Assembly: GCA_038893495.1 (NCBI GenBank)
Contig: JAWARJ010000001.1
Span: forward strand, 1,663,824-1,727,823
From: Thermoproteus sp.
GTDB taxonomy: Archaea; Thermoproteota; Thermoprotei; Thermoproteales; Thermoproteaceae
Reading direction: 5' to 3'
DNA length: 64,000 bases
Under the pieces are notes generated by a model. That model was not told the origin of the DNA and made no database searches. It saw only the letters and a list, made by a program, of their open reading frames with translations. The position numbers and the translations under genes are program-made. Each line of letters begins with the position of its first letter. Position 1 is the stretch's first letter. Positions 3,959 to 33,254 of this stretch are shown here, piece after piece.

Positions 3959-4629
3959 TGAAAATCATAGCAGAACTACCTCCATCTACCTCTAGGGCAG
4001 TCGTAATGCGGAGAGCTAGGGCGATTTCCGACTATACCAACCTCGTAGATATTCCTGACTCGCCTGGAGGGCGGCCGTCCGCACATGCGGTGGCTGTCGC
4101 ATATATCGCAAAGGAGAGCGGGCTAGACCCCATAGCCCACATCAGGCTGAGGGACTTGAACCTACTGGCTTATCGATCAATATTGGGCGCGGCCAAGCTG
4201 TTTGAACTAGAACGCATAGTGCCCCTCACAGGCGATCCCCCCGAGGTCGGGCAACCCGTAGATCATTTAAACACGGAAGCCGCCGTCGTTATCGCTCGAG
4301 AATACGGCTTTAGGGTGGGCGTGCTTTTAAGTATGAAGAGGAACTACATAGAGAGGATAAAGATAGGCGCAGATTTCTATCTCGTCCTGAATTTGGAGAG
4401 GCCGAGCCAGCTGGAGGGGCTGGCCGGCCTTGAGGCGTATCCATATCTCCTGATAAAGACAGAGAAAAATGCCGAGCTTATAAGCAGGTTACGCCAACCT
4501 GCTGTCACGTTGGAGTCGTTAAGGGCGTTTATGGAGAGTCTTGAGCCCTACGCTAAGGGCGTTATCCTATCGGCGCCTGGCGACTTCGAAGCGGAGCTAC
4601 TTGCGCTTTCTCTTATCGCTAAGAGATAG
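3958..4629 (+). CDS. Methylenetetrahydrofolate reductase-like flavoprotein
   Basis: A 223-aa protein resembling the TIM-barrel fold of MetF/MTHFR. The segment DSPGGRPSAHAVAVA followed by the region around HIRLRDLN matches the archaeal MTHFR-like group, which lacks the regulatory domain. It would reduce a C1-carrying pterin with a flavin, but the substrate cannot be read from sequence; hyperthermophilic crenarchaea use modified folates. It is translationally coupled to atpI by a one-base stop/start overlap, and its 3' end overlaps the convergent Rpp29 gene by 33 nt. Family assignment is good, exact reaction uncertain. Confidence 0.72.
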   Translation: MKIIAELPPSTSRAVVMRRARAISDYTNLVDIPDSPGGRPSAHAVAVAYIAKESGLDPIAHIRLRDLNLLAYRSILGAAKLFELERIVPLTGDPPEVGQPVDHLNTEAAVVIAREYGFRVGVLLSMKRNYIERIKIGADFYLVLNLERPSQLEGLAGLEAYPYLLIKTEKNAELISRLRQPAVTLESLRAFMESLEPYAKGVILSAPGDFEAELLALSLIAKR

Positions 4630-4860
4630 ACATCTCCTACCTAGTAGTCTCACGTCGCGATAACCTATTAAGTAAGTCCCCCTTATCAATCGCAACGAAT
4701 CTAGGTCCAAAAAGTAGCATGGGCCCTTCGGTACGACGGCAATACGGTCCCCTTTAAGTATATAAACGGCATTTTTGCTCTCGCCGACAACAACTCCCTC
4801 GGTCAGATGGCTACAGTTCATTACCTTTACCCTCTTGCCCAGAATGTCGTGGCAACTCAC
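4597..4860 (-). CDS. rnp1: RNase P protein component Rpp29/Pop4-like
   Basis: An 87-aa protein with the pattern of archaeal Rpp29: an N-terminal LGKRVKV strand, a central EGVVVGESKNAVYI strand pair, VPKGPC, and LIGYRDVRLLGRR in place of the usual LIGRPEDR motif, ending in a basic tail. It would bind the catalytic RNA of RNase P, which trims tRNA 5' ends. It starts inside the L29 gene (4-nt ATGA overlap), the place where archaeal ribosomal operons usually carry Rpp29. Sequence conservation is weak, so the call leans on gene order as well as motifs. Confidence 0.72.
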   Translation of the reverse strand: MSCHDILGKRVKVMNCSHLTEGVVVGESKNAVYILKGDRIAVVPKGPCYFLDLDSLRLIRGTYLIGYRDVRLLGRRCLSLSDKRKRK

Positions 4861-5069
4861 TTGGCGGACCCCTCCCGTTCAATTGTCAAAATTCTGGCTA
4901 TGGCCCTCCTTATATATCTAATTCTGCCCGAGTTCTCGACGATGCCTCTAGCCCTTTGCGTCTGTAGCTTGATGTATTCGGCCCTCAGCTGATCTAACAG
5001 CTTCAACCTATCTTCCCTATTCATCTGCCTTAAGGTCTTGGCGTTGAGCTTCTTAGGCGCCGAGGACAT
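4857..5069 (-). CDS. rpl29: 50S ribosomal protein L29
   Basis: Small helical protein of the large subunit exit-tunnel rim. Motifs: LRQMNREDRLKLLDQLRAEY followed by a basic GRIRYIRRAIARI helix. I prefer ATG 5069 (protein beginning MSSAPKK, 70 aa) because a purine-rich GGTGGGGAG lies just upstream; an in-frame GTG at 5087 would add six residues. It lies 30 nt downstream of S3 and overlaps Rpp29 by 4 nt, as part of one minus-strand operon. Confidence 0.9.
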   Translation of the reverse strand: MSSAPKKLNAKTLRQMNREDRLKLLDQLRAEYIKLQTQRARGIVENSGRIRYIRRAIARILTIEREGSAK

Positions 5070-5099
5070 GGCTCCCCACCTAGCCACTCATTTTAAATG

Positions 5100-5750
5100 T
5101 TACTGGCTTTGAGCCTCCTGCCTCACTGGAGGCTTCAATTTATAGTCGTCGGCAAATCTAGCGTTAGCCGGAGCTATGGCGATCCTAATGCCGTAGATGC
5201 CAGGCTTTAAGAGCACATGCACTGCAGTCCTCCTCACCGTCTTCATGGCGTCGTAACCCGTCTTGTAGACTTTACCCACTTTATACTTCTCGAACTTAGC
5301 CCTTTCTGTGGACAGCTTGCCACTAATCACGAGCTCGAAGCCCCTAGCTCCGGCCTCGGTGACCTGCCTTATTGCGACAAACGCCACCCTCCTGAACCTT
5401 ATACCTTTAGCCATGGCGTTAGCTATCCTATACGCCACGACCTTGGGGAACATCTCGGGGACGTCGACTTTAGATATATCTATTACATCTATCTGCGGGT
5501 TGTCCACGCCGAGCTTAGAACTGAGTATCTGGCTGAGCTCCTTCACCACAGCTCCCTTCTTGCCGATTATCCTGCTCGGCCTTTCGGCATATATTACTAT
5601 TCTCGTGCCTAGAGGCGTCTTTAAGATCTCCGAATCGACATAGCCGAGTCTGGCCAGCTTGTACTCCAAAAACTCCTTGATCATCCACCTCTTCACGTTG
5701 TCCTGTAGTATCTTCTTATATACAGCCAGCCTCTTGCCCTGCTGGGACAC
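5100..5750 (-). CDS. rps3: 30S ribosomal protein S3
   Basis: KH-domain protein at the mRNA entry site of the small subunit. The KH motif RPSRIIGKKGAVVKEL and the S3 C-terminal domain (GARGFELVISGKL, then AKFEKYKVGKVYKTG) are clear. I choose GTG 5750 (216 aa, MSQQGKRLAVYKK) because a TATA-like AATTTTTAAATG lies about 25 nt upstream; a TTG at 5789 would add 13 residues. Having its own promoter here means the operon is split: L22 and other neighbours normally found upstream of S3 are absent and an ABC ATPase is divergent instead. Confidence 0.94.
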   Translation of the reverse strand: MSQQGKRLAVYKKILQDNVKRWMIKEFLEYKLARLGYVDSEILKTPLGTRIVIYAERPSRIIGKKGAVVKELSQILSSKLGVDNPQIDVIDISKVDVPEMFPKVVAYRIANAMAKGIRFRRVAFVAIRQVTEAGARGFELVISGKLSTERAKFEKYKVGKVYKTGYDAMKTVRRTAVHVLLKPGIYGIRIAIAPANARFADDYKLKPPVRQEAQSQ

Positions 5751-5815
5751 AAGCCCTCTAAAGACCCCATTTAAAAATTCTCCCTCCAAGTAAATTTAAG
5801 AGCCCAACATATCTC

Positions 5816-6757
5816 GTGGACTTCGTAGTCGCCGAGAACCTATCGAAGAGGTTCACGGCAAAAGAGAGACTCGGCCTCTTCAAGACGCGCCAGAAAGTCA
5901 TTGAGGCTCTTTCTGACGTGTCGTTTAGGATCCCGAAGGGCTCGCTCTTCAGCCTAGTGGGGCCCAACGGGGCGGGGAAGTCCACCACCGTTAAGATCCT
6001 GGCTACTCTTTTATTGCCGGACTCCGGCAGGGCCTATGTTGGCGGCTTTGATGTGGTCGGCGAGGCGGCTAGGGTGAAGGAGCTCATAGGGCTTATGCTC
6101 TATCCGGACCGCGGCTTTTTCGGCCGGCTCTCCGGCTTTGAGAATCTGGTCTACTACGGCATGCTTTACGGCCTAGATAAGAGGGAGGCGAGCCGTAGGG
6201 CAAGAGAGCTCTTGGAGCTAGTGGGACTGGCGGAGGCGGGCGACAGGCCCTATGAGGAGTACTCCATGGGGATGAAGGCCAGGCTGGGTCTCGCCAAGGC
6301 CCTTATCAACGACCCGCAATTGTTGCTCCTAGATGAGCCCACAGTGGGCGTGGACCCTATAGGGGCCAGGCGGATAAGAGAGGCCATAAGGACCATGAAG
6401 AGGGAGGGCAAGACCATACTCTTCACGTCCCACAACCTGTACGAGGTGGAGGAGCTTTCGGACGAAATAGCGATAATAGCAGGAGGGAAGATCGTAGCGA
6501 TAGGGACGCCGCAAGAGATAAAGTCTAAGTTGGGCTTTAGGCCGAGAGTCTTCGTGACGTTGAGGTGTAGAGGCGACTTTCCTTACGGCGTAGCTGAGAA
6601 TGGAGAGGTCAAAATAGATGAGGAGGCCGAAAGGCCTGTGCAGATGCTCACAGAAATAATAAGAGAGGCGGAGGCGCGGAATTGTGAGGTGATTGAGGCC
6701 GCGATTAAGGAGCCATCGCTTGAGGAGGTAGTAATTAAAACAATATCTGGGCGGTAG
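5816..6757 (+). CDS. ABC transporter ATP-binding protein (ABC-2 / DrrA type)
   Basis: Cytoplasmic ATPase that would power an ABC exporter. Walker A GPNGAGKST is at residues 49-57; the signature loop is YSMGMKARL rather than LSGGQ, followed by Walker B LLLLDEPTVGVDP and the switch His in FTSHNLYE. The 313-aa length with a C-terminal extension fits the ABC-2/daunorubicin-resistance class. A TATA-like AAATTTAAG lies about 24 nt before the GTG start. No permease gene is next to it, so it is an orphan here and its substrate is unknown. Confidence 0.9.
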   Translation: MDFVVAENLSKRFTAKERLGLFKTRQKVIEALSDVSFRIPKGSLFSLVGPNGAGKSTTVKILATLLLPDSGRAYVGGFDVVGEAARVKELIGLMLYPDRGFFGRLSGFENLVYYGMLYGLDKREASRRARELLELVGLAEAGDRPYEEYSMGMKARLGLAKALINDPQLLLLDEPTVGVDPIGARRIREAIRTMKREGKTILFTSHNLYEVEELSDEIAIIAGGKIVAIGTPQEIKSKLGFRPRVFVTLRCRGDFPYGVAENGEVKIDEEAERPVQMLTEIIREAEARNCEVIEAAIKEPSLEEVVIKTISGR

Positions 6758-6760
6758 TTA

Positions 6761-6817
6761 TTGTGATGAGGACTCCAAATGGGCTTGTCGATATGGCCGG
6801 TTCATCCCTTGCTGAAT
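6761..6817 (+). ncRNA. Candidate C/D box guide sRNA
   Basis: Box C GTGATGA at 6763-6769 and box D CTGA at 6812-6815 enclose about 42 nt, the normal spacing for archaeal C/D sRNAs. A TATA-like TAATTAAAAC about 25 nt upstream would start transcription at box C. The internal D'/C' pair is degenerate (around TCGATATG, 6788-6795). It fills the short space between two convergent genes. It would guide 2'-O-methylation of rRNA or tRNA with the Nop5/fibrillarin proteins encoded at 52-54 kb. Target unknown. Confidence 0.5.
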
Positions 6818-7845
6818 TAAAATGGAACTCCCTCTCCGAGCCATTTGGCGGCGTCGAGCGCATAGTAAGTTATTATCAAATCGGCACCTGCCCTCTTGAT
6901 GCCGTAGAGGACCTCTAAGGCCACTATACGTTCGTCGATATAGCCGGCCTTCGCGGCCGCCTTTATTATCGAATATTCGCCAGAGACACTATATGCGGCT
7001 AGAGGCGCCCACGGGAAGCTCTCCTTGACGAGCCTTATTACGTCTAGATATGCGAGCGCCGGTTTTACCATAACGATATCGGCTCCCTCTTCTAAGTCCA
7101 TGGCGACCTCCTTAATGGCCTCTTTGGCGTTCCTCGGGTCCATCTGATAGGTACGCCTATCTCCAAATTTCGGGGCTGAGGCAGCAGCGATGCGGAAGGG
7201 ACCGTAGAACGCCGATGCGTATTTGGCGGAATACGCCATTATGCCCACGTCCTGATAGCCCGATGCGTCCAGCGCCTGCCTTATGGCCCTCACCTGTCCG
7301 TCCATCATGCCGCTGGGAGCCACGAAGTCAACTCCAGCGTCGGCATACACCACGGCCTCTTTGGCATATATGGAAATCGTCTTGTCATTATCTACCTTCC
7401 AGCCTCTTCCATCCCTCACCACTATTCCACAGTGTCCGTGGTCGGTATACTCGCAGAGACAGACATCTGCGAACAACAAGGCCTTATCGCCAAATACTTC
7501 TTTAAGTAATCTAATCGCGCGTGGAACCACCCCCTGCGGGTCGTAGGAGGCCTTGCCCTCGGGGTCCTTCAAGTCGTCGGGCAGGACTCCGAAAAGTATG
7601 AACTTATTTACGCCTAGGCCGAGCGCCTCTTCTACGTGTTTTATGAGGGAGTTGTCTACAGGCCATCTGTAGTAGCCGGGCATGGCTTCTATAGGCTCTA
7701 TGCCGGTCCCCTCCTTGACGAATATCGGCATTATAAAGTCGTCGGGCGACAAAGAGGTCTCGGCCACGGAGTCCCTTATGATCTTATTGGCTCTCAGCCT
7801 TCTGGGCCTGTAGACAGGATATTCTATTTGCACCTGCATGGTCAA
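6817..7845 (-). CDS. hemB: Delta-aminolevulinic acid dehydratase (porphobilinogen synthase)
   Basis: Condenses two 5-aminolevulinate molecules to porphobilinogen. The zinc site DVCLCEYTDHGHCG and both Schiff-base lysines (in MAYSAKYAS and in MVKPALAYLD) are present, and the 342-aa length is typical. It is the last gene of a minus-strand tetrapyrrole operon and overlaps the preceding MET8-like gene by 4 nt (ATGA), implying coupled translation. Confidence 0.97.
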   Translation of the reverse strand: MTMQVQIEYPVYRPRRLRANKIIRDSVAETSLSPDDFIMPIFVKEGTGIEPIEAMPGYYRWPVDNSLIKHVEEALGLGVNKFILFGVLPDDLKDPEGKASYDPQGVVPRAIRLLKEVFGDKALLFADVCLCEYTDHGHCGIVVRDGRGWKVDNDKTISIYAKEAVVYADAGVDFVAPSGMMDGQVRAIRQALDASGYQDVGIMAYSAKYASAFYGPFRIAAASAPKFGDRRTYQMDPRNAKEAIKEVAMDLEEGADIVMVKPALAYLDVIRLVKESFPWAPLAAYSVSGEYSIIKAAAKAGYIDERIVALEVLYGIKRAGADLIITYYALDAAKWLGEGVPF

Positions 7846-9863: not shown

Positions 9864-11141
9864 ATGGATATCTGGACGAGGGCCAAGGCGGTCTTTCCCG
9901 GTGGCGTGAACTCGCCCGCAAGAGCCTTGAAACACCTAGAGAGGCCGTTGGTGGCCGAGAGGGCCGAGGGGCCGTATATATTTACAGATAGAGGCCGCTT
10001 GATCGACTTCTGCGCGGCTTTCGGCGCAATAATCTTAGGGCATAACAATCCCAGAGTCAGAGAGGCCGTCGTAAGACAGCTGGAGCGGGGATGGATATAC
10101 GCCTTACTCACAGAGCAGGAAGTCGCCTTCGCTGAGGCCATAAAGTCGCACATGCCCTCTATATCTAAAATCAGATTTGTGAACACAGGGACGGAGGCCA
10201 CCATGAACGCCATAAGGCTGGCCAGAGGCTACACGAAACGCGACGTAATTATAAAATTCGACGGCAATTTCCATGGGTCTCACGACTACGTGTTGGTCAA
10301 GGCCGGTTCCGGCGCCGCCACGTGGGGCGTCCCCACAAGCGCTGGTATACCTCAAGATGTGGTGAAACTGACAGTCGTGGTGCCCTATAACGACGCAGAC
10401 GCGTTTCGACGCGCCGCAAGAGAGGTAGGCGACAGGCTCGCCGCAGTCATAGTGGAGCCCATAGCCGGAAATTACGGCTTGATAATACCGGACACAGACT
10501 TCCTCAAGGCCTTGAGGGAAGAAACCGAGGCGGTAGGAGCCCTGTTGATCTTCGACGAGGTGATCACCGGCTTTAGGGTTGGGCTGTCCGGCGCGCAGGG
10601 ACATTTCGGCGTGAGGCCCGACCTCACCACCTTGGGGAAGGTCATAGGCGGGGGCTTCCCCATAGGCGCCTTCGGCGGGAGGGAAGACGTAATGGACCTC
10701 TTATCGCCTCAAGGGCCCGTCTACAACGCCGGCACGTACAACGCCCACCCCGTCTCGATAGCCGCCGGTATGGCCGTCTTGAAGGAGCTTGAGGGCGGAG
10801 GGCCCTACGGAGTAGCCAATTCGGCCGCCGCCAAAATGGCTAGGGGCATAGAGGAGATAGCGCAGAGGTACGGCTTCGACATTGTGGTGAAGCAAATAAC
10901 GTCTATGTTCCAGTTCTACTTCAAGCGCGGCGACGTGAAGACTCCACAAGACGTAAGGGAAAGCAACGAAAAACTGTACCTAAAGCTCCACGAAATCGCG
11001 TTGGGCCAGGGAGTATATCTGGCCCCCAGCCAATACGAGGTGAACTTCACCACCGCGGCCCATACGCCAGACGTGATAGAAGAAGCGCTGGGGGCACTCG
11101 AGACCTCCTTTAAGAAGTTGAAGCAACTTGCGGCTTTTTAG
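9864..11141 (+). CDS. hemL: Glutamate-1-semialdehyde 2,1-aminomutase
   Basis: PLP enzyme that moves the amino group to form 5-aminolevulinate in the C5 pathway. Class-III aminotransferase features are clear: FVNTGTEATMNAIRLARG, FDEVITGFRVG, and the PLP lysine in TLGKVIGGGFPIG. The 425-aa length is standard. The last 32 nt overlap the convergent 3' end of hemA, whose product makes the substrate of this enzyme. Confidence 0.97.
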   Translation: MDIWTRAKAVFPGGVNSPARALKHLERPLVAERAEGPYIFTDRGRLIDFCAAFGAIILGHNNPRVREAVVRQLERGWIYALLTEQEVAFAEAIKSHMPSISKIRFVNTGTEATMNAIRLARGYTKRDVIIKFDGNFHGSHDYVLVKAGSGAATWGVPTSAGIPQDVVKLTVVVPYNDADAFRRAAREVGDRLAAVIVEPIAGNYGLIIPDTDFLKALREETEAVGALLIFDEVITGFRVGLSGAQGHFGVRPDLTTLGKVIGGGFPIGAFGGREDVMDLLSPQGPVYNAGTYNAHPVSIAAGMAVLKELEGGGPYGVANSAAAKMARGIEEIAQRYGFDIVVKQITSMFQFYFKRGDVKTPQDVRESNEKLYLKLHEIALGQGVYLAPSQYEVNFTTAAHTPDVIEEALGALETSFKKLKQLAAF

Positions 11142-12309
11142 CGAGCTTTCTGGCCTCCCGTAGTATCTCAATAGCATCGTCAAGACGGCCGCTCTCGGCG
11201 AATTTCTTCAAGGCTTCTATTAACGGCAAGACGGCCCTTTTGGCGGCCGACCTGGCGGCTGTCATCGAGTCGGCCCCCGCTCTAAGCGCCTCCTCTTGGG
11301 AGGCCGAGGCCACGTATTGCATGAATTCGCCCAGTTCTAGCTCGAAGATCCTCCTAGCCAGAGCCCTCTCGATGTTGTCTACCTCGATTAGCGCCAAAGC
11401 TCGTATTTCCTCTACTGCCGATATTCTGTCTTTATTGTAACGCTCGGCAAGGCCTTGAAGGTCGTCGATCCTCACCACCTCGACGGGGAGGCCCCTTGCG
11501 ACGTTGCCGGGAACGCCTAGGTCGACAATTACCTTGACCCTACTGCCCTCGGGTATCTTCACGATTATGGGCTCGAAGGACATGGCCGTGGTGAACACGA
11601 CATCGCACATCTTCAAGCACTTCTCGACATTCCTTTCGTCTAGGCTCATCGCAATTGCGCCGTATTTCTCCGCCACTTCTTTAGCCCTTTCGAAGGTGCG
11701 GTTTAAGATATATATGTACTGGGCCCCTTCGTCCCTCAGCTCCTTGACAAGCCCGCTCCCCACAGACCCCGCGCCTATAACGCCGAACGTCAACTTGCTT
11801 AAATCGCCGAGGCGCTCCTTCACGTAAATAATCGAGAGGCTACCCAATCCCCGCGGCCCTCTGGATATGCTAGTAGTGGTCCTTACGGCCTTGCCAAACC
11901 TTATGGCCCTCTCCACCACGGTCTTCAACGGCTCTCTAGTTATATGGGCCCTCACTTGGCTGTCGAAGGCCTCCTCCATCTGGCCCAATATGTCGGTCTC
12001 GCCTAGAAGCATCGAGTCGAGCCCAGCCGCGACCTCCAGTAGATGTAACGCCGCCTCGCGCCCCCTCCTTATCACCACCTTATCGGAATACTCCTTGTAG
12101 TGTGCCAAGACCGCCTTAACTGCATGTTGAGGGACGCCCCAGGCGTAGACTTCAACACGATTGCAAGTATGGAGGACATAGAGCGGTATGGGGAAATGCG
12201 GGGCGACGCCCACAAGCTCCATAACGCTCCTCCCCAATTCGCCCAACTTGTCGGTAGGCACCTCTCTAAACGTTATGGACGCCGAAAACAGTTCGTCCAA
12301 GAGGGCCAT
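11110..12309 (-). CDS. hemA: Glutamyl-tRNA reductase
   Basis: Reduces Glu-tRNA(Glu) with NADPH to glutamate-1-semialdehyde, committing glutamate to tetrapyrroles. The catalytic Cys sits in LHTCNRVEVYAWG; LLGETDILGQM and the NADPH-binding GVIGAGSVGSGLV follow, then the C-terminal dimerisation helices. 399 aa is normal. It is convergent with hemL and divergent from hemC, so the early pathway genes are in three separate transcription units. Confidence 0.97.
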   Translation of the reverse strand: MALLDELFSASITFREVPTDKLGELGRSVMELVGVAPHFPIPLYVLHTCNRVEVYAWGVPQHAVKAVLAHYKEYSDKVVIRRGREAALHLLEVAAGLDSMLLGETDILGQMEEAFDSQVRAHITREPLKTVVERAIRFGKAVRTTTSISRGPRGLGSLSIIYVKERLGDLSKLTFGVIGAGSVGSGLVKELRDEGAQYIYILNRTFERAKEVAEKYGAIAMSLDERNVEKCLKMCDVVFTTAMSFEPIIVKIPEGSRVKVIVDLGVPGNVARGLPVEVVRIDDLQGLAERYNKDRISAVEEIRALALIEVDNIERALARRIFELELGEFMQYVASASQEEALRAGADSMTAARSAAKRAVLPLIEALKKFAESGRLDDAIEILREARKLAKKPQVASTS

Positions 12310-12376
12310 TGATAGTGAGGTTTTTTGCTCTATTTAAATTGTGATATATTTTTAACCGAAGGCAGGAGGCCGCTGT

Positions 12377-13291
12377 GTGAAAATAAGAGTGGCCACTAGG
12401 GGGAGTAGATTGAGCCTAATACAGACCGAGATGTTCCTAAACCAAATAAGAAGTGTGGAGCCCGATGTCGAGTTTGAAGTGATAACCGTAAAGACGTCGG
12501 GCGACTTGGTGCAAGACAAGCCGCTTTACGCCATAGGCGTAAAGGGCATATTCGAGAAGGAAGTAAATCTGGCGGTGCTCAGGGGCGAGGCGGATATAGC
12601 CGTCCACTCGCTGAAGGACCTGCCTTCCGAGATACACGAAGACCTCATAGTCGCAGGCTATTCGAGGAGGGACCCCCCATACGACGTCGTAGCCAGCCTC
12701 CGCGGCTATACTATATACGACCTGCCGCGCGGAGCTAAAGTGGGCACCTCCAGCGTCAGGAGGGCGGCCTTCGTCAAGAACATAAGGCCCGACCTACGCG
12801 TAGAGACCTTGAGGGGCAATGTCGACACTAGAGTGAATAAAGTGCTACAGGGGGTCGTTGACGCGGCGATTTTGGCGGAGGCCGGCCTCGTGAGACTCTA
12901 CGGCGGGAAGCCGCCGCTTGAAATACGGCGAGTGAGGCCGGAAGAAGTGCCGCCGCCCCCCGGACAAGGCATTGTGGCGGCGGTGGCCCGGGCGAAAGAC
13001 AGCTGGATAGTGGACCTTCTGAGGAAGGCAAGCGACTATAAGGCAATGCTAGAGGCCAAAGCGGAGAGGACCTTCCTAAGAGAGGTTGGCGCTAGTTGCC
13101 ACACAGCTATAGGCGGCCTCGCCTCTGCGACTACAAGCGGTATAGAGTTTATAGCAGGATATGCCGCCCCTGACGGTAGCAGGAAAGTCATACTGAAAAT
13201 ATTCGGCGAAGACCCAGAGGAGGTAGGACTAAGGGCCGCCAGAACGTTAAAGGAATTGATCTACGAAATAGAACGCCGTCAGCTACGTTAA
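12377..13291 (+). CDS. hemC: Porphobilinogen deaminase (hydroxymethylbilane synthase)
   Basis: Joins four porphobilinogens into hydroxymethylbilane. The N-terminal [40 protein letters not shown], and the dipyrromethane-cofactor Cys in [11 protein letters not shown] are all present in 304 aa. Start GTG 12377 follows a purine-rich GCAGGAGG and a TATA-like ATATTTTTAACC. Divergent from hemA across 67 nt. Confidence 0.97.
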
Positions 13292-13322
13292 AAATTTTAA
13301 AGCTCCTATACTCATTCTGGCG

Positions 13323-13424
13323 GGGCCGGTAGTCTAGCGGAAGGACGCCCAGGAGTTGCCCCGCATGGGGCGCCGCGTAGGCCTTGCGCGCGGGAGATCC
13401 CGGGTTCGAATCCCGGCCGGTCCA
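13323..13424 (+). tRNA. tRNA-Ala (UGC) with noncanonical intron at 29/30
   Basis: Acceptor GGGCCGG pairs with CCGGTCC and contains the G3-U70 pair that identifies alanine tRNA; discriminator A; T arm CCGGG-TTCGAAT-CCCGG. Removing a 30-nt intron at 13351-13380 (between positions 29 and 30; register may shift slightly) restores the anticodon stem CCCGC/GCGGG and the loop CTTGCGC with anticodon TGC. CCA is not encoded. Such introns need the broad-specificity crenarchaeal splicing endonuclease. Confidence 0.93.
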
Positions 13425-13477
13425 CTGACATTTTATCGACTACGTTAAGATTATATTTCTCTAGAGGGCTTTTTGTC

Positions 13478-14038
13478 ATGACTAAATTAGCAAAACCTTG
13501 CATCTTGCTGGGCCGTTGTCCAGGCGATCTGGGAGATACAGAGGTTCTCTGGTTCGGCGAGGCTAAATGTGTGTCCAAGGCGTCGGCAATAGTGAAGCTC
13601 TTCGGGGCGTTGGAGGCCGCTGTGGTACATATAAACCTCGCCGCCGTGAAGGCTGAGGGGAAGTATAAAAGGGCCTTGTGGCTGGCCCTCTGGTCCCTTC
13701 AGTATGCCGGCTTCTATCTCTCCACAGGAGATAAGAAGTTTTTGGATATGGCGTTCAAATCTCTAAACCGTGCCGTGAAGTTGGCCTTCGTCCTCGCGTC
13801 GGATGCCCCCTTGGGCTGGGTCATATGTCTAGACGAATTATGTGCCTATATAAACGCCGCGAGGACCTGGGTCAGGTGGACAGAACGCAGGTTGGCGCAA
13901 GTCGACAGGGGAAGGGAGGTCATAATGCTTTTGAACCATGTGGGGAATGTCCTCTTCGAGCTCATGAGGGCGAGGGCCCATATAGTTATAAGCGGCGGTA
14001 AGGCCTTTAGATATATCCCCCCTCCGCCGACCTACTAA
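13478..14038 (+). CDS. Probable PduO-type cob(I)alamin adenosyltransferase
   Basis: A 186-aa helical protein. It aligns by eye with the PduO/ATR family: GDLGDTEVLWFGEAKCVSKA corresponds to the family's GDDGTTSLFG..RVSKD start, the next helix KLFGALEAAVVHINLA to the YGTVDELNSALGLA helix, and ARTWVRWTERRLA plus NHVGNVLFELMRARA to the R..CRRAER and NRLSDLLFVLAR motifs. It would attach adenosyl to cobalamin. Several ATP-site residues differ, so activity is uncertain. TATA-like AAGATTATATTT lies about 25 nt upstream. Proximity to the siroheme/corrin branch genes is suggestive. Confidence 0.6.
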   Translation: MTKLAKPCILLGRCPGDLGDTEVLWFGEAKCVSKASAIVKLFGALEAAVVHINLAAVKAEGKYKRALWLALWSLQYAGFYLSTGDKKFLDMAFKSLNRAVKLAFVLASDAPLGWVICLDELCAYINAARTWVRWTERRLAQVDRGREVIMLLNHVGNVLFELMRARAHIVISGGKAFRYIPPPPTY

Positions 14039-21533: not shown

Positions 21534-21857
21534 TTAAAGGCTTTTCAGCACCTCGGCGAAGATGTAGAGGAGCACTGCGCCTATCAGTAGGCTCCTCCCC
21601 GTGTATCTGCTCAGCCTAGTGAAGTAAAGGAAGGCGCCGATCATCGCCATTATAACTGCAGTTACTTGGGAAATTTTCACTATATAATATTTTAATGTAT
21701 ATTCTAAATTAACTAGAAAATTTGTTCCAAAATTTAACCAATTATTTATTATATTATTTATATTATCTAATATTTGAGCGGAATTTGTGGAGTTCGTCGA
21801 CGCCGCATAGACGCTTACGATCAATATGAGGAGGGCTAGAGCCCAGATTGGCTTCAT
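21534..21857 (-). CDS. Small membrane protein, VirB2/TedC-like pilin candidate
   Basis: 107 aa. An N-terminal signal peptide (MKPIWALALLILIVSVYA, cleavage after VYA plausible) is followed by an Asn-rich linker, then two hydrophobic helices (VTAVIMAMIGAFLYF and SLLIGAVLLYIFAEVL) joined by a short basic loop, RLSRYTGR. This is the layout of VirB2/TraA conjugative pilins and of the Thermoproteales DNA-import pilin TedC. A TATA-like AGCTTTTAAAGGC lies about 20-25 nt upstream, so it is its own unit. No ced/ted ATPase is nearby, so the role is inferred from topology only. Confidence 0.62.
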   Translation of the reverse strand: MKPIWALALLILIVSVYAASTNSTNSAQILDNINNIINNWLNFGTNFLVNLEYTLKYYIVKISQVTAVIMAMIGAFLYFTRLSRYTGRSLLIGAVLLYIFAEVLKSL

Positions 21858-23492: not shown

Positions 23493-23630
23493 ATGGAACG
23501 TGTAGTTGTCCCTCTAAAGCCTTCGGAATATAAGGCCTTGAAAGAGCTGTGTAGGAAATATGAGCTAGATCTCAACGACTGTATCAATTTAGCTATAGCA
23601 AATTTGGTATATATATACAAGGGTCTATAG
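23493..23630 (+). CDS. Small ribbon-helix-helix (CopG-like) protein
   Basis: A 45-aa protein: a strand RVVVPLKPSEY, then helix KALKELCRKYEL and helix LNDCINLAIANLVYIY. This is the length and pattern of a minimal RHH DNA-binding domain. TATA-like TTTTATACAT lies about 25 nt before the ATG. Its stop overlaps the convergent NurA gene end by 6 nt. It could be a local transcriptional regulator or an antitoxin-like protein without a visible toxin. Confidence 0.62.
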   Translation: MERVVVPLKPSEYKALKELCRKYELDLNDCINLAIANLVYIYKGL

Positions 23631-24407
23631 GAAATCCCTATATTTGTTGGAGAGTTCTAGAAACCTCGAAAGCATAATCTTCACCGTCCTTAAATATTCG
23701 CTAGAGATTTTAGCATATTTATGGGCAAGCCTCAATTTTATTGGGTAGCCAAATTTGAAGAAGGAAGCAACTACTTCTATAGGTATATATTCAGGAAATT
23801 CCACATAGAATACAGAATCTCCCTTTATATATGTGCCAAGGAATTTGCCCACCCTTATAGGTCTTAACATGGAGCCAGGCGGCTCGCCCCTAAGGAGCAA
23901 CTCAGCGCCGTATAGCTCCGATACATATCTCGAAATCTCCCTAAACCACTCGCCCGCCTCCCCGCCGAGGCCCCTCCAATAACGCGCGGCGGCGGGATCC
24001 TTAGAGACTCCCACCATCAAGCCAGTTGGGTCTGCCACATATGGCGTCAAGGGCCCGTCTAGAAGGACATATCCCCCCTCTTCCTGTGCATATCTGATTT
24101 CTTGTTGTCTTGCATAGAAATTTATATTTAAATTCTCATCTTTTTTCCTATTTAATATTATAGTTTTTATATTAATATTATTCTTTAAAATTACTAATAC
24201 AATAATGGTTAAATCTAAATATCGATATCGGATAGTAATATAGCCCGAATCTATAGCGACGTAGTCTGGAGGCATCTGAACTTCAGAGGGCCTCACGACT
24301 AGGTCCTTGTATTCATAAGCCTTTGACGCCAGTTTAATCAATATATCTTTGTTTCTTGGTATTTCTAATTCAGCTATACGTAATATTTCAGAGATAAGCT
24401 GTCTCAT
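23625..24407 (-). CDS. nurA: NurA-like 5'-3' nuclease
   Basis: NurA domain nuclease expected to resect DNA ends with an ATPase partner. Motif I is YVAIDSGY (metal-binding Asp); the acidic residues of QQEIRYAQEEGGYVLLDGPL form motifs II/III; near the C terminus FGYPIKLRLAHKYAKI has the family's GYP..L..AH signature. 260 aa, shorter than Sulfolobus NurA. ATG 24407 overlaps the upstream stop as TGATG, so translation is coupled. The usual HerA-Mre11-Rad50 neighbours are absent. The middle is AT-rich with many Ile and Asn. Confidence 0.82.
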   Translation of the reverse strand: MRQLISEILRIAELEIPRNKDILIKLASKAYEYKDLVVRPSEVQMPPDYVAIDSGYITIRYRYLDLTIIVLVILKNNINIKTIILNRKKDENLNINFYARQQEIRYAQEEGGYVLLDGPLTPYVADPTGLMVGVSKDPAAARYWRGLGGEAGEWFREISRYVSELYGAELLLRGEPPGSMLRPIRVGKFLGTYIKGDSVFYVEFPEYIPIEVVASFFKFGYPIKLRLAHKYAKISSEYLRTVKIMLSRFLELSNKYRDFL

Positions 24408-24910
24408 CAATAAATCTCTCCATATAAAATTTCTAATATTTTAGCCACAGTCTCTCTATCTACAGGACCCAGCACATCTGCTAGATATCCTGGCAGTTGC
24501 GCCTCGCCGTCTATAAATTTTTGGAGCGCCAATAGGGAAGTCGACTTTTTATATTTCTTTCTTTCCTCAAGTATTATTTTCTTTAATTTTTCTACTAATA
24601 TCTTAGTATTATCTTTATTATTATATGTTAAAAGTTCACGTTCTAAATATCCTAGTTCTTTATAGAGAGATAGAGGTATTGCCCTTATGTAGAGCACCTT
24701 GTCCAACAGGGAGGCGACTGGCTTCCCCGTATATTTACCCCATCCGACAACTGCCCCCTCCTTGACTTCGCCCACAGCTACCACCGACCGTAACTCCTTG
24801 CCTTCGAGCACGACCACATCGTAGAAGTCGTGGGGCGGCCTGGCGTCTATCACTACATCTGCGTCGAGCCTCAAATCGCCCTCCTTTAATATCAACACCC
24901 TAAGAGACAT
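24407..24910 (-). CDS. Unknown protein of the ATPase-NurA operon
   Basis: 167 aa, no family recognised. The N-terminal half is mostly beta (VLILKEGDLRLDADVVIDAR, then VVVLEGKELRSVVAVGEV), the C-terminal half helical and basic with a KKIILEERKKYKK segment. It overlaps the ATPase gene by 11 nt and NurA by one base, so the three proteins are probably made in fixed proportion and may form a complex. It could be an adaptor between ATPase and nuclease. Confidence 0.7.
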   Translation of the reverse strand: MSLRVLILKEGDLRLDADVVIDARPPHDFYDVVVLEGKELRSVVAVGEVKEGAVVGWGKYTGKPVASLLDKVLYIRAIPLSLYKELGYLERELLTYNNKDNTKILVEKLKKIILEERKKYKKSTSLLALQKFIDGEAQLPGYLADVLGPVDRETVAKILEILYGEIY

Positions 24911-27743
24911 ACTTCTTGGCTACAAGTCCCCTCTCTGCGAGCACCTCTAAATATCTAGCCACAGACCGCACGTCCATTAAGGTCTCAGAGGCGAGAGCCT
25001 CTACGTTCAGCTCTACGCCGGGACCTCTGGACGCTATTGCGATGAGGAGCTGATAGGGCACTTTCAACTCTGATGACTTCGCCCTCAACGTCTCCTCTAC
25101 GTCTCCAGAGGAGCCAAGACGCGTTTTGACCCACTCAGCGATGTTCCTCCTGATTTCCATCTTTCTCCTATATGTCTCATACTCCTCCCTCAGTTTGACC
25201 GAATACAGCTTAAGCGACGCCAAGTAGTCCTCCAGCCAGGGCTCCGGCAGGTTGAGGAGCACGTTTAGATCTACGTCCACAGATAGCTCCTTGCCGAGCT
25301 CCAAGGCCATGGGACGCAACGACCCCCAGAGCTCTAACACCTCATGCGTTTTTTCTAGGATCGCGGCCTCCCTCTCGACTATCTTCTCATCTAGAGCCAT
25401 GAACTTAATTCTTTGCGGCATTTTTTCGGCAAGTTTTTCCAACTTCGATATTAGCTCCCTCTTGGCCTTTAGTTCTTGTTCTAGTTCCCTCTTGGCGTCC
25501 TCCGCCTTTTGTTGTAGATCCAAAATGGCCTTCTTGTGGCGTATCACCAACATGGCGTATTCCTTGACGTCGTTGAATTCCAGCGGGATGACCTCTACGT
25601 CGAGTCTCCTGGCAAGTTTAATTTCGCCAAACAGCACGCTCTTAACGCTAACGGAGACCTCAATGTATGACTTCAACTGGCTCGAAAGTTCCTCGAGGAA
25701 CTTCCTGCCACGCTCCGGGTCGAACTTCACATATGTCCTATCGCCACTGGGGACTAAATAGCCCGTGTATACCAATAGCGCCAGTAGGTCCTCCTCGCGT
25801 ATATCCCTCCATAAGTTTATAGGGAACAACCTCGCTATTAGCGATTTAATTTCTCTTTCGTGTATTTCGCCATTTATCCTCCTTAGCAATATATCTGCAA
25901 TCTTATTGAAGGAGGACATACCCTCGGGAGCCGAGCCCGATATGATCTGCTCTGCGGCTTTCAACAACGCATATTCCTTACGTTCCTTTCCTCGTTTCAA
26001 CGCTAGAGTGTACTTGAGGACGTTCTCCCTGGCCCTCTCCCTCGCGAGCCTTAGCTCTTCAGCTACCTCAAGCATTCCTGCTTCTTTACCTAATATCTTA
26101 TCTATTTGATATCTTATAATTTTATATTTTAATTTATCCAATCTATCAGCACCATATATATGAATATATACATATTTGCTCGATGTGTCTGTATATGAGT
26201 TTTTCCAACTGACTTTAAGCAATGGGGATAACTCTTGCTCCAATTCGCTTGATAATAAAGTGTTAGAAAATATATATATGATTATATAATCCACTGGATA
26301 CTCATCTATTAAACCTTCCATTATTATCTCACTTATATTTTCTCTAAATATATTCAAATCATTATCTCTATCTATGTGGGACAGTACAACCAATTCTCTA
26401 AACCCCAAATTGTTGTACCATATGGCCCTGCCGCAACACGTCTTCATACGTATCCCACTCAGTTCCAACAACCTCTCGACCTCGGCGAGAAACGCGGCAG
26501 GCTCTTGTAGCTTTACGGCCAGTTCTTTGCTTAACCTGGCGGCTTCATCTCTAGATGTGAAGTTAGCTATATCTTCGCTGATCATATAGGCTTTGCCTAG
26601 TAGATATCCATCTAGCTCTTCTATTTCGTCATAGCTAATGAAATAAATGAATAGGGACCTGTCTTCGACTATGCTGTAATATAAATACGGCTCGTATGAG
26701 GCGCTCTTCTCGTCGGAGGGCACAATTTCTTTACCTTTCACGCTGAGGAATTTATTAATTATATTTATAGCTTCTTTATCTTTAAATGGAATTCTATATA
26801 AGTAAACCGTTTTAAAAATGTCTTTGTATTTTTCTTTTATTTCTAGTAGCGGTATGCCGGAAAGCACGTACTCCGCTAACTCCGCATTGGAGAGACTTAT
26901 CCCCTCCTCCGAGGCTAAGTCTGCCAGACCTCTGCCTCTGCTCTTCAGCTCGAACAGCCTAGCCGTAAGCTTTAACAGATAGCGGGGATTCACCTCGCCT
27001 TTCCTTAACGCTATGTTGTAGAGCGCTGCGAGCTCATGTAGAGTAAATGGCCAGAACCTCTCGGGCCTTTTGGCGGCTATATATGCGTCAAGTCTGGACT
27101 CGACGACCTCTAGGTAGAGCCAGAATGGGAACCTGGTATCTAATGTTATCTCCCTATATACGCGGCCTGTAGTTAGATCGAATACGTCAGGCACGACGTT
27201 CTTCAATATTGTGTAGTAGACTTGCGGCGTTAAGGCCGCTATTATTAGCACCTTGTCGTAATTTTCGGGGTTTTTCAACACGTGGGAGTAGTTCCTGGGC
27301 TCCAATAGCGCCCGTATTAACGATGCCAAATCCATCACGGCTTGTCTGAACTGATCGTTGGACAGAGCGCCGAGTCGGTACATAGCAGCTAGACGTGACA
27401 GCTCGTCGGCTTCGTCTATTAGTACCACCAGGGGGACCCCTTTGGGCTTGTCCTCTACGCTCTTAAGGAGGTCGTCCTTAAAGCTATGGGACAACGCGAC
27501 CCTCACATATCTCAATCCCCTCGCGCTGGCCTCTTGTTGCACCTCGTCGAGGAATTCGCTCTTGCCGTAGCCATACGGCGCGACTACTACCGCCAAGACG
27601 TTATTATGAGTCTTTAAGATCAAATCGAAAAGTTCGACCACTTGAGCCATCTCCTTCTCAAAGCCAAGAGCCCTATGTAGCCTAAACAGGTGGGTAACTC
27701 CCGAGGGGCTAAACGGCGAATCTACGATATTATACACGCCCAT
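24900..27743 (-). CDS. Large P-loop ATPase with coiled coil and winged helix
   Basis: 947 aa. An AAA+/STAND-like domain lies at the N terminus: Walker A VAPYGYGKSE near residue 60, Walker B VVLIDEADEL near 115. The middle (about 330-640) is not recognised. A long coiled coil (about 745-830, RHKKAILDLQQKAEDAKREL onward) and a C-terminal winged helix (ALASETLMDVRSVARYLEVL) follow. ATG 27743 is chosen because GAGGAGG stands just upstream; a TTG at 27776 would add 11 residues. It is not HerA. Operon order with NurA suggests a DNA-processing motor or sensor. Confidence 0.75.
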   Translation of the reverse strand: MGVYNIVDSPFSPSGVTHLFRLHRALGFEKEMAQVVELFDLILKTHNNVLAVVVAPYGYGKSEFLDEVQQEASARGLRYVRVALSHSFKDDLLKSVEDKPKGVPLVVLIDEADELSRLAAMYRLGALSNDQFRQAVMDLASLIRALLEPRNYSHVLKNPENYDKVLIIAALTPQVYYTILKNVVPDVFDLTTGRVYREITLDTRFPFWLYLEVVESRLDAYIAAKRPERFWPFTLHELAALYNIALRKGEVNPRYLLKLTARLFELKSRGRGLADLASEEGISLSNAELAEYVLSGIPLLEIKEKYKDIFKTVYLYRIPFKDKEAINIINKFLSVKGKEIVPSDEKSASYEPYLYYSIVEDRSLFIYFISYDEIEELDGYLLGKAYMISEDIANFTSRDEAARLSKELAVKLQEPAAFLAEVERLLELSGIRMKTCCGRAIWYNNLGFRELVVLSHIDRDNDLNIFRENISEIIMEGLIDEYPVDYIIIYIFSNTLLSSELEQELSPLLKVSWKNSYTDTSSKYVYIHIYGADRLDKLKYKIIRYQIDKILGKEAGMLEVAEELRLARERARENVLKYTLALKRGKERKEYALLKAAEQIISGSAPEGMSSFNKIADILLRRINGEIHEREIKSLIARLFPINLWRDIREEDLLALLVYTGYLVPSGDRTYVKFDPERGRKFLEELSSQLKSYIEVSVSVKSVLFGEIKLARRLDVEVIPLEFNDVKEYAMLVIRHKKAILDLQQKAEDAKRELEQELKAKRELISKLEKLAEKMPQRIKFMALDEKIVEREAAILEKTHEVLELWGSLRPMALELGKELSVDVDLNVLLNLPEPWLEDYLASLKLYSVKLREEYETYRRKMEIRRNIAEWVKTRLGSSGDVEETLRAKSSELKVPYQLLIAIASRGPGVELNVEALASETLMDVRSVARYLEVLAERGLVAKKYVS

Positions 27744-28482: not shown

Positions 28483-29022
28483 GTGGATATATGCATAACA
28501 TCAGGCTCTAAGGGAGGCACTGGAAAAACTACTTTTAGTTTCATACTATCTCATGTCTTAAACTATATATATAAAAAAGATGTTTATATTATAAATTTAT
28601 CGAAGATATCATATAATTTAAAAACAAATATTAACATCGTATTTGAGGCCAATGGCGCTCCGCTTAGACTTTTCGATTTCCCCGCATTTGGGCTTACAGA
28701 CCGCGTGTTGTTAGATTACTATCTGTCCTGTAGAAATGTCGTATTTGTTGCAGATGAAGATCCACAGACTATCGAAATAGCTAAGACCTACCTAAAAATA
28801 GCTAGAGGCGACAAACTAGGAATTTTAATTAATATGATAATTGGAAAGCCTAAATTAAAATATTTAATAAGTTATAGGAGATTTGGGAAGGTCTACTTAA
28901 TACCTTTCGATAGGGAGTTGCGCATATATAGGGCAGAAGGGCTGGACCCCATAAAGGTGAGGAGTCCAGGTGTCGTCAAGATGATCAGAGCCGCCGTAGA
29001 TATAGCAAAGAAGATTAAATAG
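28483..29022 (+). CDS. ParA/Soj-like ATPase
   Basis: 179 aa. Deviant Walker A KGGTGKTT at residues 10-17, Walker A'/switch Asp in LFDFPAFGL, and VVFVADEDPQTIE match the ParA/MinD superfamily, though the protein is short. The N-terminal half is AT-rich and Asn/Ile/Lys-rich. No ParB or centromere-like repeats are visible, so it is an orphan; the divergent 47-aa protein may be its partner. A role in DNA or protein positioning is inferred from the family only. Confidence 0.78.
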   Translation: MDICITSGSKGGTGKTTFSFILSHVLNYIYKKDVYIINLSKISYNLKTNINIVFEANGAPLRLFDFPAFGLTDRVLLDYYLSCRNVVFVADEDPQTIEIAKTYLKIARGDKLGILINMIIGKPKLKYLISYRRFGKVYLIPFDRELRIYRAEGLDPIKVRSPGVVKMIRAAVDIAKKIK

Positions 29023-32296: not shown

Positions 32297-32990
32297 GGCC
32301 ATATTGGCCCTAGAGAAGAGAGACCCCCAATATCTGGCCATATGTAAGCTGTGTCGGGCAAGAGGCGAAGAGGACACTGCACGGCTCGCCATGTTGAACG
32401 CCCTCGTGAGTTACAGATTGGCCGGCAAGGGCGAAGAACATTGGGAATACTTCGCCGAGTTTTTCTCCAGAAGGAGGAGCCGCGATATCTGTGAGGAATT
32501 TTTGGAATATCTGAAGGCCAGCCCGTATTTGGCCTTGGCGAGAAACGCCAAGATTAAGAGAACACTTAAGGCGTGTCGCTACGAGCCAGATCTAGAGGAC
32601 CTCACAAAGACTTGGAGGGACTTAGCGGCGCTAGTGGGCGCCGATACTGAGTCTAAAACTATAGTATTTGCCATAAAGATCTTGAATTATGTATATATAT
32701 GTTGTAGAGGTACAGAGAGGCTACTGCCTATGGAAATCCCGATACCTGTCGACTACAGAGTCGCCAAGCTTTCGGCTTGTCTCGGCCTAATAAGAGCAAG
32801 TCCTGAGGAGGCGTTGAGGAGAGCCAGAGAGGTTCAGGAAGCGTGGAATAAAGTCGCCAAGGAGAGCGGGATACCTCCACTCCATATAGACACACTGCTC
32901 TGGCTTGCAGGCAGAGCAGTGCTTTACGGCGATCGCGACTACGGAATACCGGCCGACTTTTTAACCCTCGTGAAGAGATTTTGCCACTGA
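32253..32990 (+). CDS. N-glycosylase/DNA lyase AGOG
   Basis: Archaeal 8-oxoguanine DNA glycosylase first described from Pyrobaculum. It excises 8-oxoG and cleaves the strand by beta-elimination. LTKTWRDLAALVGADTESKT, then the catalytic Lys in VFAIKILNY and the Asp in LHIDTLLWLAG fit the helix-hairpin-helix active site. 245 aa. It starts 44 nt inside priL, coupling repair and replication genes; the 3' end overlaps the convergent gene by 30 nt. Confidence 0.92.
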   Translation: MAEEIVELLRRIGPEAILALEKRDPQYLAICKLCRARGEEDTARLAMLNALVSYRLAGKGEEHWEYFAEFFSRRRSRDICEEFLEYLKASPYLALARNAKIKRTLKACRYEPDLEDLTKTWRDLAALVGADTESKTIVFAIKILNYVYICCRGTERLLPMEIPIPVDYRVAKLSACLGLIRASPEEALRRAREVQEAWNKVAKESGIPPLHIDTLLWLAGRAVLYGDRDYGIPADFLTLVKRFCH

Positions 32991-33254
32991 TATAGCCATA
33001 CTTTCAATTTGCTTAAGGCTTCTCCTAGTTGATATAGGCCTAATTAGCACTATATAATTATTTTCTATCTTTATATAATTTGCTTCGATGAGCCTCTTTA
33101 GTACTTCTTCTGCAGTCTTATCGCCAGCCCAAAATCGAAGCGCCCTGTAGGAGCGGAGATATTTTGCCTTGACCTTGCCGCCTCTTACTGCCAATTCCTC
33201 CAATATGTATAGAGCGATTTCCGATAGGAGTTTCCGCCTATCGACAATGCTCAT
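32961..33254 (-). CDS. Winged-helix-like hypothetical protein
   Basis: 97 aa, basic. The pattern IALYILEELAVRGGKVKAKYL, then AEEVLKRLIEANYIKIENNYI looks like a winged helix (helix-turn-helix followed by a two-strand wing). It overlaps the aconitase X small subunit gene by 17 nt and is the last gene of the mevalonate operon, so it may regulate it, but this is inference. Confidence 0.6.
   Translation of the reverse strand: MSIVDRRKLLSEIALYILEELAVRGGKVKAKYLRSYRALRFWAGDKTAEEVLKRLIEANYIKIENNYIVLIRPISTRRSLKQIESMAISVAKSLHEG

What the first reader, a model, noticed from the sequence alone, without database searches (positions are those of the whole stretch)
23625..27743. Candidate undescribed system: large coiled-coil ATPase - unknown 167-aa protein - NurA operon
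NurA is normally paired with the hexameric ATPase HerA (and Mre11-Rad50). Here NurA is coupled (TGATG, 11-nt overlap) to an unknown protein and a 947-aa ATPase that is not HerA: AAA+/STAND-like P-loop (APYGYGKSE, VVLIDEADEL), long coiled coil, C-terminal winged helix. ThermoDBP is close by. The set could be a lineage-specific end-resection machine or an anti-virus system. The gene overlaps and motifs are seen; the function is inference.
Basis: partly seen in the sequence, partly recalled or inferred. Interest (0 to 1): 0.78.

Follow-up and report, generated by a model that had tools for sequence, protein, structure and literature searches.

The report
Conserved ATPase–adaptor–NurA nuclease operon, Thermoproteales
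One order of heat-loving archaea carries, in nearly every species, a three-gene operon that couples a DNA-cutting enzyme of the NurA family to a large ATPase unlike its usual partner HerA and to a small protein of unknown fold, probably a previously undescribed DNA-maintenance machine rather than a virus defence.

Summary
Three overlapping genes on the minus strand encode a 947-aa ATPase (24900-27743), a 167-aa protein (24407-24910) and a compact NurA (23625-24407). The order ATPase, small protein, NurA is kept head to tail in 34 of 36 testable genomes, in all three families of the order and all 8 genera with hits. All 25 genomes that are at least 90% complete have the ATPase, once. Outside the order neither ATPase nor small protein has a credible homologue in the phylum, viral or plasmid collections searched. 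NurA is real: its profile finds SsoNurA (2YGK) and keeps the aligned D54/E104/D118. It is the fourth NurA in the genome; the standard nurA-herA-mre11-rad50 locus lies elsewhere. The ATPase is not HerA: its model best matches Orc1/Cdc6 AAA+ proteins. The small protein matches nothing. Gene distances track the replication protein Gins23 (r = 0.92-0.95) at similar rates, which favours housekeeping over antiviral defence. Best reading: an order-specific DNA-processing module in which an Orc/Cdc6-clade ATPase, not HerA, serves NurA. Physical partnership and function are inferred, not shown. Two MAGs of one genus keep the ATPase but show no partner genes.

The parts
24900..27743 (-). Large ATPase, 947 aa: Orc/Cdc6-clade AAA+ domain (about 28-270), alpha+beta region (310-550), predicted winged helix (612-673), helix plus beta hairpin (676-713), coiled coil (726-876), C-terminal winged helix (882-937)
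   Evidence: ORF, ATG with Shine-Dalgarno-like stretch; invariant Walker A/B; AlphaFold2, mean pLDDT 87.1, pTM 0.48; best Foldseek match Cdc6 of P. aerophilum, E 2.5e-5; S. solfataricus Cdc6/Orc1 2qby, rmsd 4.9 over 304 columns; domain limits beyond the AAA+ are my reading of the secondary structure
24407..24910 (-). 167-aa protein: N-terminal beta domain (7 strands, residues 5-79), C-terminal helices with ERR..K.S.TL motif; putative adaptor
   Evidence: E116, R117, Y167 invariant in 29 orthologues; pLDDT 88.7, pTM 0.59; no match in Pfam, PDB sequence, PDB fold or viral fold searches
23625..24407 (-). Compact NurA-family nuclease, 260 aa from ATG (261 aa from TTG at 24410)
   Evidence: 27 of 29 orthologues match PF09376; profile finds SsoNurA 2YGK at 1.2e-7, aligned D54, E104, D118; D54, E104, D118, K137 invariant in 29
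24900..24910 (-). 11-nt overlap of the ATPase end and the 167-aa start
24405..24409 (-). TGATG stop-start coupling of the 167-aa gene and nurA
   Evidence: Read from the sequence

Best explanation
The trio is an order-specific, vertically inherited DNA-processing module. Proposed mechanism: the large protein assembles on DNA through its Orc/Cdc6-clade AAA+ domain and winged helices, with the coiled coil as spacer or oligomerisation arm. It uses ATP to load on or remodel DNA ends or branched intermediates and, through the 167-aa adaptor, delivers them to the NurA nuclease. It thus plays, with an unrelated ATPase, the role that HerA plays for the other NurA proteins. Shown: conservation, operon structure, intact ATPase and nuclease motifs, fold class of the ATPase, vertical inheritance. 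Inferred: physical complex, DNA as substrate, adaptor role, and a housekeeping role in repair or recombination.
For: Fixed gene order and tight coupling in 34 of 36 testable genomes although flanks change between families. Present in every genome at least 90% complete in the order, one copy. No match outside the order with the ATPase-domain profile in 398 phylum genomes. NurA ligands and Walker motifs invariant. ATPase model matches DNA-binding Orc1/Cdc6. Distances correlate with Gins23 at r 0.92-0.95 with similar rates. A separate HerA-NurA-Mre11-Rad50 locus exists.
Against: No direct evidence of a complex or of activity; no complex prediction could be run. In the G045 MAG (69% complete) the ATPase stands without the other two genes although the contig continues, and G044 (87%, contig end beside the ATPase) has no match to either partner profile, so the ATPase may have a role of its own. 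In G070 the 167-aa/NurA pair lies apart from the ATPase. Operon membership does not prove partnership, and DNA handling is inferred from fold class.
Confidence: 0.55

Rival explanations
1. Antiviral or anti-plasmid system, like BREX or HerA-nuclease defence systems: the ATPase senses foreign DNA and NurA cuts it.
For: 11 of 30 ATPase members touch the Pfam BrxC_BrxD model (best 2.1e-5), and the order of domains is reminiscent of that described for BrxC (PMC12839542).
Against: Nearly universal in the order, single-copy, vertically inherited at Gins23-like rate, housekeeping flanks; no significant profile similarity to E. coli BrxC; no BREX partner seen in the neighbourhoods; only weak, scattered PADLOC matches; absent from the viral and plasmid collections searched.
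Confidence: 0.12
2. NurA still works with a HerA encoded elsewhere, and the ATPase and 167-aa protein form a separate complex that merely shares the operon.
For: Pyrobaculum has an unpaired herA group (PMC3396285); this genome has seven DUF87 ATPases over the cut-off against four NurA; the ATPase can stand without NurA (G045).
Against: The three genes stay coupled over three families while flanks change, and none of the HerA-family hits lies in the window.
Confidence: 0.2
3. Part of the Thermoproteales DNA-import (Ted) apparatus, processing incoming DNA.
For: In family f1 a small signal-peptide membrane protein and a ParA/MinD-like ATPase lie nearby; Ted loci carry ParA, HerA and Rad50 genes (PMC9905601).
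Against: The small membrane protein family matches no pilin in the PDB sequence search; no TedA/TedB-like gene was recognised beside it; neither neighbour is linked to the trio in family f3.
Confidence: 0.08

Closest known systems
HerA-NurA (with Mre11-Rad50) end-resection machinery
   Same: NurA-family nuclease with the same aligned ligands, coupled to an ATPase gene
   Different: ATPase is Orc/Cdc6-clade AAA+ with coiled coil and winged helices, not a HerA/FtsK ATPase with HAS barrel; an extra 167-aa protein; no Mre11-Rad50 in the operon; NurA shorter (260 aa against 331-427 aa for the other three in this genome)
CRISPR-linked nurA-csm6-herA cluster of Thermoproteales (PMC3396285)
   Same: NurA with a small protein gene beside it and an ATPase
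   Different: The small protein there is Cas_APE2256-like and the ATPase is HerA; that pair and csm6 are absent from P. islandicum according to the paper
BrxC of BREX
   Same: Orc/Cdc6-clade AAA+, winged helices, alpha+beta domain, long coiled coil
   Different: No significant profile match to E. coli BrxC; no BREX genes seen nearby; nearly universal in the order rather than scattered
Orc1/Cdc6 initiators
   Same: Closest solved AAA+ fold
   Different: About 550 further residues, including the coiled coil, and coupling to a nuclease gene

Membership tests
NurA nuclease | NurA domain over its full length | tested here: met
   27 of 29 orthologues match PF09376 (best 5.4e-20); profile matches 2YGK 18-312 at 1.2e-7; the window member alone is 0.8 bits under the cut-off
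NurA nuclease | Metal-ligand acidic residues | tested here: met
   D54, E104, D118 invariant in 29 and aligned with D and E positions of SsoNurA; that these are the ligands is from memory, the structure paper was not held
NurA nuclease | Nuclease activity | not testable with these tools
   Needs an assay
HerA-NurA system | HerA/FtsK-type ATPase (DUF87, HAS barrel) in the operon | tested here: not met
   No DUF87 or HAS-barrel match in the ATPase or orthologues among the families shown; DUF87 hits of the genome lie elsewhere
BREX (BrxC ATPase) | BrxC-family ATPase | tested here: inconclusive
   11 of 30 members match PF10923 weakly, but it is not among the matches of the window member; no match of the profile to E. 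coli HS BrxC
BREX (BrxC ATPase) | PglX, PglZ and other BREX genes at the locus | tested here: not met
   None recognised in the window around the trio; flanking clusters in the order are unrelated
AAA+ ATPase, Orc/Cdc6 clade | Walker A and B, conserved arginines, AAA+ fold | tested here: met
   Invariant G58, G60, K61, D110, E111, R144, R194, R254; Foldseek to Cdc6/Orc1
GINS (for the 167-aa protein) | Profile or fold similarity to Gins23 | tested here: not met
   hhalign probability 18.6 over 36 columns at non-equivalent places; no GINS among the 50 fold matches shown
Known defence systems (PADLOC) | Convincing match to a defence protein model | tested here: not met
   Only weak AAA+ or coiled-coil matches, best 5.3e-6, for scattered members

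The most novel reading that the evidence does not exclude
The trio is a second, HerA-independent class of NurA machine: an Orc/Cdc6-clade AAA+ motor or loader, a new-fold adaptor and an RNase H-fold nuclease that together resolve or resect branched DNA, a working analogue of RuvB-RuvA-RuvC that is core to genome maintenance in Thermoproteales. The adaptor gave only insignificant RuvA fold matches (E 0.36 and above), so the RuvABC comparison is an analogy only.
Probability: 0.2. Interest if true: 0.82.

Novelty: new variant of a known kind. Interest (0 to 1): 0.6.

Why it matters
NurA has been studied as the nuclease of HerA. A conserved operon in which it is coupled to an unrelated AAA+ ATPase would show that NurA is a modular nuclease served by more than one motor. 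It would also add an order-specific component to the genome maintenance of Thermoproteales, an order that has also replaced its single-stranded DNA-binding protein. Genomes in the order that keep the ATPase without NurA offer a natural test of which part is indispensable.

Tried and rejected
GINS-like identity of the 167-aa protein (a sequence resemblance I noticed): rejected by profile comparison with Gins23 of the order and by fold search. HerA HAS-barrel identity of its beta domain: no support (single-sequence comparison). RuvA-like: fold matches insignificant. BrxC orthology of the ATPase: no profile match to E. coli BrxC, only weak Pfam matches in a third of members. TedC identity of the neighbouring 107-aa membrane protein: no PDB sequence match. 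Plasmid or viral origin: no ATPase match; the NurA profile could not be scanned in the viral collection. Coiled-coil matches in the PDB profile search were discarded as low-complexity.

Full report
OBSERVATION. The window lies in a complete 1.995-Mb genome (G000, window at 1663824-1727823). Three minus-strand genes overlap: ATPase (24900-27743; mechanical TTG ORF to 27776), 167-aa protein (24407-24910) and NurA (ATG at 24407 to 23625). The ATG at 27743 is preceded by a GGAGGGGGG stretch, and orthologues begin near the same residue, so 947 aa is preferred.

NURA. The window protein scores 20.2 bits on PF09376, under the cut-off of 21, so it would be missed by cut-off annotation. The family is nevertheless certain: 27 of 29 orthologues match (best 5.4e-20), and the alignment profile finds SsoNurA 2YGK at 1.2e-7 over nearly its full length. 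D54, E104, D118 and K137 are invariant, and the first three align with D, E and D of SsoNurA. That these are the metal ligands rests on my knowledge of the family; the paper was not held. Nuclease activity is not shown.

OTHER NURA GENES. The genome has three more NurA genes. One sits in the standard cluster NurA-HerA-Mre11-Rad50; one is beside a Cas_APE2256-like gene and a convergent HerA; one has no HerA beside it. PMC3396285 describes three nurA-herA pairs in Pyrobaculum, including the CRISPR-linked one, and an unpaired herA group. The window NurA is a fourth kind. Seven DUF87 ATPases over the cut-off lie elsewhere in the genome.

ATPASE. It is not HerA. Members touch AAA_16 (25 of 30), nSTAND_NTPase5 (23 of 30), BrxC_BrxD (11 of 30) and MarR_2 (14 of 30), none convincing for the window protein. 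The AlphaFold2 model (pLDDT 87.1, pTM 0.48) best matches Cdc6/Orc1 (1fnn E 2.5e-5; 2qby rmsd 4.9 over 304 columns). From the secondary structure I read AAA+, an alpha+beta region, a winged helix, a beta hairpin, a coiled coil and a C-terminal winged helix. This is reminiscent of the architecture described for BrxC (PMC12839542), but a profile comparison with E. coli HS BrxC found nothing. I therefore call it an Orc/Cdc6-clade ATPase of its own family.

SMALL PROTEIN. Seven strands followed by helices (pLDDT 88.7, pTM 0.59). No significant match by sequence or fold. E116, R117 and the last residue Y167 are invariant. A GINS idea and a HAS-barrel idea were tested and dropped.

DISTRIBUTION. The ATPase is found in 41 of 81 genomes of the class, all in the order, and in every order member at least 90% complete, one copy each. 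With the ATPase-domain profile nothing outside the order reached 1e-8 in 398 phylum genomes. The small protein had only marginal matches outside the order, two of three with stop codons inside. The NurA profile matches outside the order only weakly (2e-7 to 9e-6), as expected for other NurA proteins. The ATPase has no relative in the viral collection or in plasmids at the sensitivity used.

OPERON CONSERVATION. Neighbourhoods of 35 other genomes were compared. The trio is contiguous and co-directional in 34 of 36 testable genomes, usually overlapping or within a few bases. Flanks differ completely between families f1 and f3, while the trio stays. Exceptions: G070, where the 167-aa/NurA pair is 3.8 kb from the ATPase in the other orientation (possibly assembly), and G045, where the ATPase is present and both partners are missing although the contig continues. 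G044 (contig ends beside the ATPase) has no match to either partner profile; G043 has no match to any of the three.

INHERITANCE. Tree distances of the ATPase, small protein and NurA correlate with Gins23 at 0.954, 0.917 and 0.927. The ATPase and small protein evolve at about the Gins23 rate and NurA about 1.5 times faster. This fits vertical inheritance under housekeeping constraint and gives no sign of an arms race. It does not by itself prove function.

FUNCTION. The best-supported reading is a DNA-processing module in which an Orc/Cdc6-clade AAA+ ATPase with DNA-binding domains serves NurA through a small adaptor, parallel to HerA-NurA. Conservation, coupling, motifs and fold class are shown; complex formation, substrate and pathway are inferred. 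Defence is disfavoured but not excluded. A serious rival is that NurA uses an unlinked HerA.

LITERATURE. Searches for NurA with HerA, Thermoproteales, Cdc6 or ThermoDBP returned no paper whose listing or searched passages describe this operon. The library holds only open-licence papers, so absence is not proof.

Noticed in passing
window 21534-21857 (-): 107-aa protein with signal peptide and hydrophobic segments, conserved beside the radical SAM and ThermoDBP genes in 12 genomes of family f1; resembles a pilin in layout but matches no PDB pilin sequence.
   Followed up: partly
window 28483-29022 (+): ParA/MinD-like small ATPase conserved near the trio in family f1 only.
   Followed up: no
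L050 (G045) 3854-7207, L054 (G044): ATPase gene kept with intact Walker motifs; in G045 the 167-aa gene and nurA are missing from the contig, in G044 the contig ends beside the ATPase and neither partner is found in the genome.
   Followed up: partly
L068 (G070) 5586-6864 and 10703-13564: The 167-aa/NurA pair lies apart from the ATPase, in opposite orientation, on one contig.
   Followed up: partly
L057 7607-8770 (G000 140777): Third NurA paralogue with no HerA beside it, flanked by a phosphorylase-like gene and ABC transporter genes.
   Followed up: no
window 24905 and 24410 regions: Both the ATPase and the 167-aa protein end in a conserved tyrosine near the C-terminus (Y945 of 947, Y167 of 167), also in genera where the genes do not overlap; possibly a docking tail.
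   Followed up: no
L039 4979-5278, L041: In genus g7 a 97-99-aa winged-helix-like gene, elsewhere near the primase large subunit gene (window 32961-33254), follows nurA on the same strand.
   Followed up: no
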